A stretch of DNA of 33,703 bases from Deltaproteobacteria bacterium (GTDB lineage: Bacteria > Desulfobacterota > Desulfuromonadia > Desulfuromonadales > Geopsychrobacteraceae): assembly GCA_024276905.1 (NCBI GenBank), contig JAJRWF010000146.1:1-33703 (forward strand). The letters run 5' to 3'. The notes beneath the pieces are model-generated. The model had not been told where the DNA came from and made no database searches. It was given only the letters and a program-made list of their open reading frames with translations. This document shows, piece by piece, positions 6,966-22,985 of this stretch. Within the stretch, counting starts at the first letter, position 1. Each line of letters opens with the position of its first letter. A program made the translations under genes and the position numbers.

Positions 6966-7005
6966 TGCCATGTCTTGCAGGGTGGAATTAAAGGAGGGCA
7001 TACAG

Positions 7006-8388
7006 ATGCAGCGACTACAATCCAAACTTCTCAATAACTGGCTGCAGAACAATCATCGCAAACCGCTGATTGTACGGGGGGCCAGACAAGTCGGTAAGTC
7101 AACCCTGGTGGAATTGTTTGCCACGGAAAATCGGCAAAAATTGCGCTGCATCAATCTGGAACGACACCCGGAATTGGCGGAGATTTTCGCCACCAAGGAT
7201 CCGCAACGGATTATTCAGCAAATCGAATTTCTGCCGAAAATGGGTGACATCAGCAATGAATCTCTGCTGTTTTTTGATGAAATACAGGCTGTTCCTGAAG
7301 CAATTGCCGCGTTGCGCTATTTCTACGAGGAAAAGCCGGAAATACCTGTTGTCGCCGCTGGCTCATTACTGGAGTTCGCCCTTGCAGACCATTCGTTTTC
7401 CATGCCGGTGGGGAGAATTCAATATCTGCATATGGGACCGATGACGTTCAGCGAGTTTCTGCTGGCACTGAACGAGGAACGCCTTTATCAGTTCATCACG
7501 GGTTATGAATTTGGTCAGGAGATTGGCGAGGTTGTCCATCAGCGTTTACTCGATCTGCTCAAATCCTATTATTATGTCGGCGGGATGCCCGAAGCGGTGG
7601 CCGTGTTTGCAGAGACACGCAGTTACCGGGCGGTGAGCGAGGTTCACCAGTCAATCATTGACACCTACCGTGACGATTTCCCGAAGTATGCCGGTTCACG
7701 CAACCTGAACCGCATGCTGAATGTGTTTAATTTTGCAGCCAGGAATGTCGGCATAAAAGTAAAATACAGCAACATTTCCCGCCAGGAACAGAGCGTAACC
7801 CTCAAGAAGGATCTCGAGCTATTGGCTATGGCCAGAGTTATCAGCAAAGTCGTGCACAGCCACTGTTCCGGTTTGCCGCTACAGGCGGACCTTGAAGAAA
7901 AAGTTTACAAGTTGCTCTTTCTTGACATCGGGCTGATGAACGCCATTTGCGGTCTGGATTGGCTCAATCTCTCGCAAATAGACGAGGGGAAATTCATCAA
8001 CCAGGGTGCTATCGCCGAACAATTCATCGGGCAACATTTGCAGGCCATACTCGCCGACAACACAAATCGGGCATTGAATTACTGGCTGCGTGAAGGAAAA
8101 TCGTCCAATGCCGAGCTGGATTTTGTCGTTGCTCTGGGCGGGAGAATCATCCCTGTCGAGGTGAAGTCGGGGGCCACAGGATCTTTAAAATCGTTGCATC
8201 AGTTTATGGGCAGCAAACCGGCGTCACTCGCTGTCCGGTTTGACACCCAGCTCCCCAACGTGCAACAGGTAGAGACCGTCATCAAACAGAACAAGGAACA
8301 AAAGCAGGTAAGCTATCCCCTTATTTCCCTGCCCCTCTATCTGGTCGAACGGTTAGAGACCATTGTTCTTGATTGTCAGGCAAGATAG
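7006..8388 (+). CDS. AAA ATPase with C-terminal DUF4143 domain
   Basis: The 460-residue product has a P-loop (RGARQVGKSTL, about residues 24-34), a Walker B motif (LLFFDEIQ near 84-91), a sensor-like AAGSLLEFAL, and a C-terminal DUF4143 region with a nuclease-like core ELDFVVALGGRIIPVEVKSG. This is the AAA_14/DUF4143 family, a common accessory ATPase of unproven function whose C-terminus resembles PD-(D/E)XK folds. I chose ATG 7006 because AAGGAGG precedes it; an in-frame ATG at 6970 lacks such a site. It stands alone in the island, opposite in direction to the surrounding core operon, and appears intact, unlike its neighbours. Members are often found next to mobile elements and may act in defence, but nothing here shows that. 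Confidence 0.9.
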   Translation: MQRLQSKLLNNWLQNNHRKPLIVRGARQVGKSTLVELFATENRQKLRCINLERHPELAEIFATKDPQRIIQQIEFLPKMGDISNESLLFFDEIQAVPEAIAALRYFYEEKPEIPVVAAGSLLEFALADHSFSMPVGRIQYLHMGPMTFSEFLLALNEERLYQFITGYEFGQEIGEVVHQRLLDLLKSYYYVGGMPEAVAVFAETRSYRAVSEVHQSIIDTYRDDFPKYAGSRNLNRMLNVFNFAARNVGIKVKYSNISRQEQSVTLKKDLELLAMARVISKVVHSHCSGLPLQADLEEKVYKLLFLDIGLMNAICGLDWLNLSQIDEGKFINQGAIAEQFIGQHLQAILADNTNRALNYWLREGKSSNAELDFVVALGGRIIPVEVKSGATGSLKSLHQFMGSKPASLAVRFDTQLPNVQQVETVIKQNKEQKQVSYPLISLPLYLVERLETIVLDCQAR

Positions 8389-17312: not shown

Positions 17313-18713
<1,401 letters not shown>

Positions 18714-18800: not shown

Positions 18801-19193
18801 TCACAGAGGGTGGAGTCGGTAACTGGTCCCTTTCTTTTCACGTCTCAATTGTCCCTGCTGATCCAGCTCGCGCAATATTTTCTGCAGATCTCGACGGTCC
18901 TTGCCTGGAAAATTGGCGTAAAGTTCGGTCTGGGTCAAACCGGGGTTTTCTTCGACTCTCTGCAGAATAGCTTCCGACAGCTCCCTGCCGCTGTTCGGTG
19001 TTTCGTTGCCTGCAGATGCCTCCTGCACCGCTGGAGCAGGAGCTGGTTCAGCCTCAACCGAAGAGCTGTCGTCCTCGTCAACCAGAGCACGTTGCTCAGC
19101 ACGAATCTCCCTTTCAATTTCGAGCAGGCGCCGGTAGACATAATAACCGGCTGCAATCAGGGCGATCAACAATAGAATAAAAAACAATTGCAT
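18801..19193 (-). CDS. Membrane-anchored protein with C-terminal winged-helix-like domain
   Basis: The 130-residue product has one N-terminal membrane helix (LFFILLLIALIAAGYYVYR), a short charged helix (EIEREIRAEQRALVDEDDSS), a Pro/Ala-rich acidic linker, and a C-terminal region SEAILQRVEENPGLTQTELY followed by DRRDLQKILRELDQQGQLRR. The latter is the pattern of a winged helix that reads DNA or mediates protein contacts. No specific family is recognised. It starts 4 bases downstream of the zinc-finger gene's stop codon, so both are likely one transcript. A membrane anchor tied to a DNA-binding-like fold is uncommon; it could be a tether or a sensor. The role is unknown. Confidence 0.75.
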   Translation of the reverse strand: MQLFFILLLIALIAAGYYVYRRLLEIEREIRAEQRALVDEDDSSSVEAEPAPAPAVQEASAGNETPNSGRELSEAILQRVEENPGLTQTELYANFPGKDRRDLQKILRELDQQGQLRREKKGTSYRLHPL

Positions 19194-19196
19194 AGA

Positions 19197-19517
19197 CTAA
19201 ATTTCCTCCTCAGCGATGTCTTTTTCCTCCCGGCCGAACCAATGGTCGAACCAGTTACGATGATCCTTCTCGGCCAGAATTTTCAGATCATTGGGGCCGA
19301 GCCAGACGCCCCCACACCCCCGACAACGATCAAGCGGGACATCACGAAATGTCATCGGCTCAATCGCATCTCCACACTTGGGACAACGATTAAGGCAATG
19401 GGTGCGGGCCAGTGTTTCCTCAGCCTCCTCTTTCATCTTGTTGATCAGTTTCTGTTCCTGCCGATGAAAATATTCATTCTCGAGGGCTTTTTTACGGTCT
19501 TCCCAGGCATCTTTCAT
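19197..19517 (-). CDS. zf-TFIIB domain protein
   Basis: From ATG 19517, with GGAGG six bases upstream, 106 residues. The first half is a charged helix (KKALENEYFHRQEQKLINKM). Residues about 45-75 form the zf-TFIIB ribbon: CPKCGDAIEPMTFRDVPLDR followed by CRGCGGVWLG. The C-terminal third is acidic. Such proteins are widespread and mostly uncharacterised. An upstream in-frame start at 19601 would overlap the Cas6-like gene's end and lacks a binding site, so I reject it. Confidence 0.88.
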   Translation of the reverse strand: MKDAWEDRKKALENEYFHRQEQKLINKMKEEAEETLARTHCLNRCPKCGDAIEPMTFRDVPLDRCRGCGGVWLGPNDLKILAEKDHRNWFDHWFGREEKDIAEEEI

Positions 19518-19600
19518 AAGGAACCTCCACGGCCGAGCAGAAATACTTGTAATCCTTGTTTTATTATACCCGAATGGCCCGTGACGACAACAGATCGACA

Positions 19601-20518
19601 TTAAACAAGGCGATAGCGCCCGGCACCGAATGCAGCGCCCTTACCGATACCGAACAGTTCACCGACTTTGAGCAGTGGCCAGAGCTCAACCAGTCCGGCC
19701 CCGCTGAGTGTCACAGAACCGAGCAGACCACCAGCCTCTTCACGGCTGTGCAATGGACGCCAATCCTGCCAGTCAAATCGGGCCTCTGTTTCCTGCAGAG
19801 ACCGCGAACAATCCAGCAGGAAACGGGGATCGAAAACATCCTCCAGATCTGCCCAGACTGCAAGCATCCCGGTCACCCGGCGCAGGATAAACGGCAACAC
19901 CTCGGCAAATCCGGAGCGAAACAGCGGCCGCTGGTTTTTTATCAACCGGGCCGGACTCAAGAATTCGAAGTCGATGGCTGAAGGAGCAACAGAGTCGAGC
20001 ACAGATGAGAGATCAAAAATCTGCGGCGTTAAACCAAACGGACCACCACACCAGAGAGGTTCTGTTTCCATTCCACTGTTGCAACTTTCGATTTTTTCAA
20101 GCATGAAACGCCCACTGCTGCCACACAAACCGATTTCACCCAGTGCCGCAAGCAACCGGGAAAAAATTTCCACCTGCAACATGCCTCGACCAAGAAAACA
20201 GACGTTCAACTCAAGACAATCCTCGCTAGCGAACTTCTGTTGCTGCAACTGATCAATCTGCAGGACAAAACCGGGGGCAGGTTGCTGAACGCGGCGTAAC
20301 AGAGCGGGATCTGTCGGCAGAGAGGGCCGGAGAAGCTCCCTGAAGTCAGCAGGAACCCGACCTCCAGACAGATCGCCCCTCATGACTCGACTGAACTCAC
20401 GCCGCAAACGCAGTAGCGCATAGGGCGGCAAAAGAAGATCCTCCGTAAACCGCAACTGATAGCGTAACAGCGTGTACTCAGCACCGAGCAACTGCGTTTT
20501 CAGCGCACTGTCAATCAA
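19601..20518 (-). CDS. Stand-alone Cas6-like RAMP protein
   Basis: The 305-residue product ends LKVGELFGIGKGAAFGAGRY, the glycine-rich loop that defines Cas6/RAMP C-terminal domains (PF10040 type). It also has LPPYALLRLRREFSRVM near the N-terminus, FLSPARLIKNQRPL, and GGLLGSVTLSG before the loop, in the usual order for this family. Cas6 proteins cut pre-crRNA, yet no CRISPR array and no other cas gene are present here. The protein has one histidine only (LHSREEAGG), in the C-terminal half, and lacks the Cys-rich CPY segment common in relatives, so catalysis by the usual His is doubtful. TTG 20518 is the likely start; no ATG fits. It is divergent from tgt and may head a unit with the two genes that follow. 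Confidence 0.8.
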   Translation of the reverse strand: MIDSALKTQLLGAEYTLLRYQLRFTEDLLLPPYALLRLRREFSRVMRGDLSGGRVPADFRELLRPSLPTDPALLRRVQQPAPGFVLQIDQLQQQKFASEDCLELNVCFLGRGMLQVEIFSRLLAALGEIGLCGSSGRFMLEKIESCNSGMETEPLWCGGPFGLTPQIFDLSSVLDSVAPSAIDFEFLSPARLIKNQRPLFRSGFAEVLPFILRRVTGMLAVWADLEDVFDPRFLLDCSRSLQETEARFDWQDWRPLHSREEAGGLLGSVTLSGAGLVELWPLLKVGELFGIGKGAAFGAGRYRLV

Positions 20519-20581: not shown

Positions 20582-20610
20582 TCTAGGCCCCTGATCACAT
20601 GGAGAGACCG

Positions 20611-21744
20611 ATGTTCAACTTTGAACTTCTACATACGGACCCGCAAACCGCCGCCCGGCGCGGACGACTTCAGACTCCGCACGGCGTCATCGAAACCCCG
20701 ATTTTCATGCCGGTCGGCACCCATGGCGCCCTCAAGGCAATGACCCCGGCCCAGGTCGAAGAGACCGGAGCCCAGATTATTTTGGCCAACACCTACCACC
20801 TGCACCTCAAGCCGGGAGAATCCCTGGTCAAAAAAGCCGGCGGCCTGCACAGTTTCATGAACTGGAAAGGTCCGATCCTGACCGACAGCGGCGGGTTTCA
20901 GGTTTTCTCTCTTCCCAAAAAACGGATCGGCGAAGAAGGCGTCCACTTTCGTCACGAACTGACCGGTGAAGAGATTTTTCTCGGCCCCAAAGAAGCGATG
21001 CAGATCGAGAACGACCTCGGTGCCGATATTATCATGGCCTTCGATGAATGTATCCCCTACCCGGCGACCCACGACTATTCCGCCCGGTCGATCAAAAAAA
21101 CCCTGCGCTGGGCGGAAAGCTGCCTCAAATATCACAGGCGTGATGACCAGGCGTTGTTCGGCATCGTCCAGGGGAGTATCTACCCTGACCTGCGCAAGGA
21201 ATGCGCCGAGCAGATGACGAAAATGGATTTCCCCGGTTATGCAGTCGGTGGCGTCAGTGTCGGCGAGGGCCTTGAACTGCTGAAAAAAGTGGTTGAATAC
21301 ACTGCGCCCTTTTTACCCGAGAACAAACCGCGCTACTTGATGGGCGTCGGACTTCCCGAAGATATTCTGGAAAGTATCGAACGCGGGATGGACATGTTCG
21401 ACTGCGTTATCCCGACCCGTTACGCACGCAGTGCCACGCTCTTTACCAGTCGCGGCAAGCTGCGCCTGACCAATCGTCAGTATCGCCGTGATTTTTTTCC
21501 GGTTGACCCGGCCTGTGACTGTTACTGCTGCCAGAATTTCAGCCGAGCCTACCTGCACCACCTGTTCAACGCCAATGAAATCCTCTCGGCGACCCTGTCG
21601 GCGATACATAATGTCCGCTTTTACCTCAATATAGTCGCTGGCGCCCGTAAAGCGATAGAGGCCGGTGAGTTTACAGCCTATAAAGAGGACTTTCTCGGCA
21701 ACTACGGCTCATCTGAAGAAAAAAAGAAGAAAAAAAGGAAATAG
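20611..21744 (+). CDS. tgt: Queuine tRNA-ribosyltransferase
   Basis: Tgt exchanges guanine-34 of tRNAs for Asp, Asn, His and Tyr with the queuosine precursor preQ1. I choose ATG 20611 because GGAGAG lies just upstream and family members start MFNFELL-like; ATG 20599 would add four residues and has no binding site. Seen: PIFMPVGTHGALKAMTP, GGFQVFSL, DIIMAFDEC (active-site Asp), ALFGIVQGSIY, GYAVGGVSVGE, MFDCVIPTRYARSATLF (nucleophile Asp) and the zinc site CDCYCC...H. About 377 residues. The C-terminal tail is unusually Lys-rich (EEKKKKKRK). In many relatives tgt lies with queA, yajC and secD; it is alone here. Confidence 0.97.
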   Translation: MFNFELLHTDPQTAARRGRLQTPHGVIETPIFMPVGTHGALKAMTPAQVEETGAQIILANTYHLHLKPGESLVKKAGGLHSFMNWKGPILTDSGGFQVFSLPKKRIGEEGVHFRHELTGEEIFLGPKEAMQIENDLGADIIMAFDECIPYPATHDYSARSIKKTLRWAESCLKYHRRDDQALFGIVQGSIYPDLRKECAEQMTKMDFPGYAVGGVSVGEGLELLKKVVEYTAPFLPENKPRYLMGVGLPEDILESIERGMDMFDCVIPTRYARSATLFTSRGKLRLTNRQYRRDFFPVDPACDCYCCQNFSRAYLHHLFNANEILSATLSAIHNVRFYLNIVAGARKAIEAGEFTAYKEDFLGNYGSSEEKKKKKRK

Positions 21745-22135: not shown

Positions 22136-22336
22136 TCAGACTTTCTCTACGTTGCTGGCCTGAGGCCCTTTCTGCCCTTCTGACACATCGAAAGAGACGC
22201 GCTGACCTTCAGCAATAGACTTGAAGCCCTCACCGGAAATCGCCGAAAAATGTACAAACACATCAGGACCATTGTCCTGCTCAATAAAGCCGAAACCCTT
22301 GGAATCATTAAACCACTTTACCGTTCCTTCTGCCAT
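22136..22336 (-). CDS. Cold-shock protein (CspA family), copy 1
   Basis: The 66-residue product has the OB-fold RNA-binding motifs KGFGFIEQD (RNP1) and VFVHFSAI (RNP2). Such proteins are RNA chaperones that prevent secondary structure in mRNA. The start is ATG 22336, [11 protein letters not shown]; the upstream ATG at 22381 is in frame but lies before the binding site. It shares 57 of 66 residues with copy 2. It has its own terminator. No promoter was clear in its upstream 220 bases. Confidence 0.97.
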
Positions 22337-22587
22337 CGTCTTGTCTCCCTCTGTTCCCCTCTGGAACTGCGGTCGCGGCACGAACTAATCGTACCAGAGA
22401 TGATATTCCCCTCGGAATTCCCGTCATCGACACCTCTGTCGGCACAGGAGTTGAGCATGGATCCCCGAGTCAAAGTACGCTAACACGGTGTTCTATTCGG
22501 TGCAAGTTGATTTTTCGACACCATTAATTGAACCCACTGAACCGACTGAAAAAGGGGAAGAAGGTAAAAACAACAACCGCACAAACA

Positions 22588-22666: not shown

Positions 22667-22867
22667 TCAGATTTTGACAATGTTGCTCGCTTGAGGACCC
22701 TTTTGACCTTCGGTGACGTCAAAGCTGACACGCTCACCCTCGTTGAGTGACTTGAAGCCCTCGCCTGAAATCGCCGAGAAATGTGCGAACACATCGGGCC
22801 CGTTGTCCTGCTCGATAAAACCAAAACCTTTAGCATCATTGAACCACTTTACAGTACCTTCAGCCAT
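22667..22867 (-). CDS. Cold-shock protein (CspA family), copy 2
   Basis: The 66-residue product [20 protein letters not shown] differs from copy 1 at nine positions; RNP2 reads VFAHFSAI, a variant common in the family. It is a CspA-type RNA chaperone. A near-consensus promoter lies 119 bases upstream, so the mRNA has a long leader of about 110 bases, as in cold-regulated csp genes where the leader controls translation. The two copies are tandem on the same strand but each has its own 3' hairpin, so I expect separate regulation. Confidence 0.97.
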
Positions 22868-22985
22868 CTTTTCTGCTCCTCGTTCTTCTCTGTGGAATAA
22901 ACTGCCTCAACCTGCGGCAAACAACCAGGTCATCCCCCTAAATGGGTCGACCCACGACAACACTCTAATGAAATCAATAGCGACA

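What the first reader, a model, noticed from the sequence alone, without database searches (positions are those of the whole stretch)
19601..20518. Stand-alone Cas6-like RAMP protein with a single histidine and no CRISPR array
The protein has the Cas6 C-terminal G-rich loop and the family's motif order, yet no cas gene or array lies in 33.7 kb. Its only histidine is in the C-terminal half, and the Cys-rich segment of many relatives is absent. It is followed on the same strand by a zf-TFIIB protein and a membrane-anchored winged-helix protein. This could be a Cas6 relative working on a cellular RNA, an RNA-binding protein that has lost cleavage, or the orphan of a lost CRISPR system. Of all the loci here it is the best candidate for an undescribed function.
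Basis: partly seen in the sequence, partly recalled or inferred. Interest (0 to 1): 0.72.

Follow-up and report, generated by a model that had tools for sequence, protein, structure and literature searches.

The report
Inherited Cas6-like protein outside CRISPR
A protein with the fold of the CRISPR RNA-cutting enzyme Cas6 is kept as an ordinary single-copy chromosomal gene across nearly a whole class of bacteria, most of which show no CRISPR adaptation gene, so a piece of bacterial immune machinery appears to have been given a permanent, still unknown, cellular RNA job.

Summary
The gene at 19601-20518(-) encodes a 305-aa Cas6-fold protein (Pfam and PADLOC Cas6; AlphaFold2 model pLDDT 92, Z 19.8 to a solved Cas6) with a single histidine (H257) and no Cys4 segment. 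It is not a remnant. Orthologues occur in 176 of 194 genomes of the class, almost always as one copy at one housekeeping locus (tgt | [frdCAB] cas6L - zf - [ftsH] - WH | enolase). Only 74 of those 176 genomes have Cas1, the same rate as genomes without the gene. The window's genome and a complete congener lack Cas1, Cas5 and type III RAMPs. The class-wide copies form one clade (SH-aLRT 99.7) separate from type III-linked Cas6, and have lost that group's YKG..RGxFG, RYSxRQ and (in this order) Cys4 and G-loop histidine motifs, while keeping the G-loop lysine and an Arg-Arg pair. dN/dS is about 0.13-0.20. One family has lost cas6L, zf and WH from the locus. I read it as a CRISPR-independent ('domesticated') Cas6 that binds a cellular RNA, probably without the classical Cas6 active site. 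Its target, and whether it cleaves, are unknown. I found no description of it in the open-access library searched.

The parts
19601..20518 (-). cas6L: stand-alone Cas6-fold protein, 305 aa (stop included in coordinates)
19197..19517 (-). zf: small zinc-ribbon (PF13453 TFIIB-type) protein, about 106 aa, start MKDAW; follows cas6L on the same strand in 42 of 54 relatives
18801..19193 (-). WH: 130-aa protein with N-terminal hydrophobic stretch and C-terminal winged-helix-like domain (domain call sub-threshold); near cas6L in 40 of 54 relatives
19563..19590 (-). promoter-like site TTGTCG-16-TATAAT upstream of zf (consensus match only)
20599..21744 (+). tgt, divergent neighbour, context only
17343..18713 (+). 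enolase, convergent neighbour, context only

Best explanation
Shown: Cas6 fold, class-wide single copy at one locus, no statistical link to Cas1, a separate clade, purifying selection, and loss of motifs that CRISPR-linked relatives keep. Inferred: the two RRM-like domains, the G-loop (K293) and the conserved arginines (R39, R191, R213-R214) bind a structured cellular RNA. The classical Cas6 active site between helix 1 and the G-loop is probably no longer used, so the protein acts mainly as an RNA-binding or chaperone factor. In this order it works with the small zinc-ribbon protein encoded next door, possibly supplying in trans the zinc element that this branch lost, and with a membrane-anchored winged-helix-like protein. 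The CRISPR-independent inherited Cas6 part I hold at about 0.9; the binding-without-classical-cleavage part at about 0.6.
For: One homologue in 54 of 60 relatives, 28 of 31 genera, and 176 of 194 class genomes, 63 of 68 genera. Cas1 in 74 of 176 carriers versus 7 of 18 non-carriers, Fisher p = 1. No Cas1, RAMP (PF03787) or Cas5 in G000 or in complete congener G003. Same locus across families. Order and Geobacterales-like copies together are one side of a branch against type III-linked Cas6, SH-aLRT 99.7. Some genomes (e.g. G086) hold both kinds. Motif differences. Model pLDDT 92.2; best match the Cas6 domain 6dd5, Z 19.8, 253 aligned. dN/dS 0.13-0.20 in nine pairs; Mantel r 0.77 with tgt, 0.78 with WH, 0.60 with zf. 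One family lacks all three genes while tgt, ftsH and enolase remain.
Against: No RNA target is known, and nothing tested shows RNA binding. Loss of histidine does not prove loss of cleavage: active Sulfolobus Cas6 enzymes lack a general acid/base and use basic residues (PMC3727216). zf is not adjacent in 12 of 54 relatives nor beside the Geobacterales-like copies, and occurs unlinked in some genomes, so partnership is not obligatory. The loss of all three genes in family f4 is one event. The tree is quick, unrooted and without bootstrap. Orphan arrays were not excluded genome-wide.
Confidence: 0.6

Rival explanations
1. Cas6L is an active metal-independent endoribonuclease that has been retargeted to one cellular RNA (for example a hairpin in an mRNA or sRNA) using basic or tyrosine residues instead of histidine.
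For: Fold and G-loop lysine intact. RR213-214 and R39 invariant in the order. Tyr at column 222 in 100% and His at column 290 in 62% of the Geobacterales-like copies. Sulfolobus Cas6 is active without His (PMC3727216).
Against: Residues conserved in CRISPR-linked relatives near helix 1 (YKG..RGxFG), RYSxRQ and the G-loop His are lost in this order. No substrate known.
Confidence: 0.27
2. Resident crRNA processor: a fixed Cas6 that serves whichever CRISPR effector module arrives ('cas6 as attractor gene').
For: cas6 is reported to stay fixed while effector modules shuffle (PMC6452270). 30 of 85 carriers in the order have Cas1.
Against: 55 of 85 carriers have no Cas1; type III RAMP found in 1 of 60 relatives. 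Type III loci in the class bring their own Cas6 of another clade. No Cas1 correlation. Motifs of type III-linked Cas6 lost.
Confidence: 0.06
3. Non-catalytic structural or protein-binding role: the Cas6 fold is a scaffold for the zinc-ribbon and membrane proteins with no RNA function.
For: Close linkage to zf and WH in most order members; loss of all three in one family.
Against: G-loop lysine and arginines, elements that contact RNA in Cas6, are among the best conserved positions. The Geobacterales-like branch keeps the gene without adjacent zf or WH.
Confidence: 0.06
4. Degenerating orphan of a lost CRISPR system.
For: No cas genes nearby.
Against: Class-wide retention, dN/dS 0.13-0.20, no stops inside in any of 55 listed matches, fixed locus.
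Confidence: 0.01

Closest known systems
Type III-associated Cas6 (PF10040 family, formerly DUF2276), e.g. copies beside csx1-cas10-csm2-csm3 in the same class (L085, L091, L093, L116)
   Same: Same family by profile (HHalign 100% probability, E 5e-47), same two-RRM fold and C-terminal G-loop.
   Different: CRISPR-linked members keep a Cys4 knuckle (100%), YKG..RGxFG, RYSxRQ and the G-loop His (90-100%); the stand-alone order branch has essentially lost these, has DPxxxRRxQKP and GKGAxYGAG instead, and sits in a housekeeping locus.
Cas6 domain of Marinomonas mediterranea Cas6-RT-Cas1 (PDB 6dd5, 7kft)
   Same: Closest solved structure: Z 19.8, rmsd 3.7, 253 residues; 6dd5 and 7kft are the only PDB hits by sequence profile.
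   Different: Part of a spacer-acquisition fusion in a CRISPR system; 17% identity.
PhCas6nc, non-catalytic Pyrococcus horikoshii Cas6 (as reviewed in PMC3727216)
   Same: Precedent for a Cas6 that binds RNA but does not cleave.
   Different: An archaeal Cas6; not compared by sequence here.
DUF2276 proteins in cas loci (PMC3936711)
   Same: Same Pfam family (PF10040), described there as G-loop proteins without functional annotation.
   Different: That paper describes copies in cas loci, often beside csx16/VVA1548, not a chromosomal CRISPR-free copy.

Membership tests
Cas6 (fold and sequence family) | PF10040 / Cas6 profile match above cut-off | tested here: met
   42.6 bits against cut-off 25; PADLOC Cas6 4.9e-49 over 14-304
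Cas6 (fold and sequence family) | Two ferredoxin/RRM-like domains with C-terminal G-rich loop | tested here: met
   model pLDDT 92.2; Z 19.8, 17.0, 16.1 to solved Cas6 over the whole chain; GIGKGAAFGAG
Cas6 (functional: crRNA maturation) | Linked to cas genes or an array | tested here: not met
   no cas gene or array found in the window; locus is housekeeping in all families examined
Cas6 (functional: crRNA maturation) | Host genome has a CRISPR-Cas system to serve | tested here: not met
   no Cas1, RAMP or Cas5 in G000 or in complete G003; G000 is 92% complete and arrays were not scanned genome-wide
Cas6 (functional: crRNA maturation) | Motifs conserved in type III-linked members (Cys4, YKG..RGxFG, RYSxRQ, G-loop His) | tested here: not met
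   Cys4 0-2% and G-loop His 9% in the 56 order members against 100% and 90-100% in CRISPR-linked members; YKG and RYSxRQ segments replaced
Cas6 (functional: crRNA maturation) | Metal-independent cleavage of CRISPR repeat RNA | not testable with these tools
   needs biochemistry
CRISPR-associated type III Cas6 clade | Groups with CRISPR-linked Cas6 in a tree | tested here: not met
   stand-alone copies form their own side of a branch, SH-aLRT 99.7

The most novel reading that the evidence does not exclude
A Cas6 captured once from a CRISPR system (probably type III) in the ancestor of a bacterial class became a vertically inherited housekeeping RNA-binding or RNA-processing factor, with loss of its own zinc knuckle matched in one order by a dedicated zinc-ribbon partner encoded next to it.
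Probability: 0.5. Interest if true: 0.85.

Novelty: new variant of a known kind. Interest (0 to 1): 0.7.

Why it matters
Known CRISPR exaptations (transposon guidance, type IV, Cascade-STAND modules) are multi-gene modules, mostly tied to mobile elements or defence. A single Cas protein fixed as a core gene across a class would be a different outcome: immune RNA machinery absorbed into ordinary cell physiology. It is directly testable, because the class includes genetically workable laboratory strains. It also bears on annotation: the name 'CRISPR-associated endoribonuclease Cas6' would wrongly imply CRISPR in most genomes of the class.

Tried and rejected
Orphan or pseudogene: rejected by conservation and dN/dS. 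Mobile-element cargo: plasmids gave one weak match, an annotated CRISPR cas6 of Allochromatium; phages gave none. zf as obligatory partner: rejected as stated, since 12 of 54 relatives have no adjacent zf and 8 genomes outside the order carry zf unlinked. tgt as functional partner because of adjacency: weak, since tgt is separated by frdCAB in other families and kept where cas6L is lost. zf/cas6L co-occurrence is significant (75/10/1/12, p 9e-9) but driven largely by one loss in family f4, so not counted as independent evidence. No Rfam family in the window. Literature searches for stand-alone Cas6, DUF2276, GSU1179, Cas6 with Desulfuromonas or Geobacter found no description of this gene; the library lacks most subscription papers and all bioRxiv. 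One genome-contig scan found a single close relative. In the phylum outside the class, matches are sporadic with several copies in some genomes, and 7 of 10 neighbour proteins tested there (one from each of ten loci) are Cas10. Several mixed Pfam/PADLOC calls failed on wrong ORF coordinates and were repeated in part. A first group alignment clipped the N-termini of the Geobacterales-like and CRISPR copies and was redone.

Full report
Observation. The ORF at 19601-20518(-) is real: 305 aa, TTG start. It matches PF10040 CRISPR_Cas6 at 42.6 bits against a cut-off of 25 and a full-length PADLOC Cas6 model at 4.9e-49. Its only histidine is H257. The window holds no Rfam match and no CRISPR-like repeat train. 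The genes tested around it are mostly housekeeping: tgt, enolase, AdoHcyase, accA, rpsB, dxr, uppS, lptF/G. The next gene on the strand is a PF13453 zinc ribbon. The one after it has an N-terminal hydrophobic stretch and a C-terminal domain whose winged-helix assignment rests on sub-threshold hits only.

Fold. AlphaFold2 on the 54-row alignment gives pLDDT 92.2 and pTM 0.91. The best solved matches are all Cas6: 6dd5 Z 19.8 (rmsd 3.7, 253 residues), 6fjw 17.0, 4ill 16.1, TTHB231 14.8, TTHA0078 14.2; Foldseek E 2.8e-12 to 6dd5. A Geobacterales-like orthologue also folds with confidence (pLDDT 91.1), with 6dd5 at Z 20.0.

Distribution. A homologue is found in 54 of 60 relatives and 28 of 31 genera, one copy each except one genome. 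With the profile it is found in 176 of 194 genomes of the class, 63 of 68 genera. For families outside the order this count may include CRISPR-linked Cas6, so it is an upper bound there; of 38 such loci inspected, 29 group as stand-alone and 9 with type III-linked Cas6. Within the order, 85 of 98 have it. Of the 13 without, 10 are all the sampled members of one family (f4) and 3 are incomplete assemblies.

Independence from CRISPR. Cas1 is found in 30 of 85 carriers against 3 of 13 non-carriers in the order (p = 0.53), and in 74 of 176 carriers against 7 of 18 non-carriers in the class (p = 1.0). The window's genome (92% complete) and the single-contig congener G003 (100% complete) have no Cas1, no type III RAMP and no Cas5. 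Type III RAMPs occur in 1 of 60 relatives. Genome-wide array scans were not possible.

Locus. In the window's family the gene is divergent from tgt, and enolase lies convergent beyond WH. In other families the order is tgt | frdCAB, cas6L, zf, ftsH, WH | enolase, with pieces missing or moved. Much the same chromosomal place is kept across the class. In family f4 the block reads tgt | ftsH | enolase with cas6L, zf and WH missing, and genome-wide searches find none of the three in the f4 genomes listed. That is one loss, so the co-loss is suggestive only. zf follows cas6L on the same strand in 42 of 54 relatives and WH is near in 40 (counted per genome). A promoter-like site precedes zf, so an operon is not shown.

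Two kinds of Cas6 in one class. Some genomes hold further PF10040 proteins beside csx1-cas10-csm2-csm3-csm5 (type III-A) or Cas10d, Cas7 and Cas5 of type III-D. In the rest of the phylum matches are sporadic, sometimes several per genome, and 7 of 10 tested neighbour proteins are Cas10. In a tree of 84 rows the class-wide stand-alone copies are one side of a branch against all the type III-linked and phylum copies, SH-aLRT 99.7; the order copies form one group (100) and the Geobacterales-like copies another (99) (an earlier tree). The tree is unrooted, so that a CRISPR Cas6 was captured, rather than the reverse, is inferred from the much wider diversity of CRISPR Cas6.

Motifs. CRISPR-linked copies keep LPxYKGSxxRGxFG, four cysteines (100%), WxRYSxRQ and a G-loop histidine (90-100%). 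Stand-alone copies of the order have 0-2% of the cysteines, 9% of the histidine, and LRREL in place of the YKG segment. The Geobacterales-like copies keep most cysteines (59-90%), have 62% of the histidine, and have lost the YKG and RYSxRQ segments. Both stand-alone branches share DPxxxRRxQKP and GKGAxYGxG, and both keep the G-loop lysine (98-100%) and an Arg-Arg pair (lists). The His of the RRVTxMLxxH motif, present in 61% of the order, is Trp in the window. Known Cas6 active sites lie between helix 1 and the G-loop, but residues vary and active Sulfolobus enzymes have no general acid or base; a non-catalytic RNA-binding Cas6 is also known (PMC3727216). So loss of the classical site is likely, and loss of cleavage is not proven.

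Selection and descent. dN/dS in nine close pairs is 0.13-0.20; pairwise distances track tgt (Mantel r 0.77), WH (0.78) and zf (0.60). This fits vertical inheritance under purifying selection, although cas6L evolves much faster than tgt (median identity 38% against 83%).

How it most likely works. Shown: fold, distribution, locus, clade, selection, motif change. Inferred: it binds a structured cellular RNA through the inter-domain cleft and G-loop, with cleavage lost or altered; the zinc-ribbon protein is a partner in this order. The branch that lost the internal Cys4 knuckle is the one with an adjacent zinc-ribbon gene, and the branch that keeps the knuckle is not. This is a correlation on two branches and counts as a lead only.

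Literature. Searches of the open-access library found PF10040/DUF2276 as proteins in cas loci (PMC3936711) and general reviews of Cas evolution and exaptation without this case. Subscription papers and preprints were not searchable, so novelty is 'not found', not 'shown absent'.

The names 'order' and 'Geobacterales-like' in this report rest on that and on the kinship labels of the search tool.

Noticed in passing
window 22136-22381(-) and about 22669-22870(-): Two similar cold-shock-type genes appear to lie in tandem between tgt and the rlpA-like gene; the first was translated, the second judged by reading only.
   Followed up: no
window 6970-8388(+): AAA_14/DUF4143 ATPase in an otherwise housekeeping region.
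   Followed up: no
L150, L152, L154: In family f4 the tgt-ftsH-enolase locus has lost cas6L, zf and WH, although some f4 members have Cas1.
   Followed up: partly
L060 and L061 (G050): One genome (73% complete) has two cas6L copies, each followed by a zf gene; could be a duplication or a mixed assembly.
   Followed up: no
L033:4854-6824(-): A 656-aa ORF on the opposite strand upstream of cas6L with no Pfam match; it sits where frdA lies in sister genomes and is probably the antisense of frdA.
   Followed up: no
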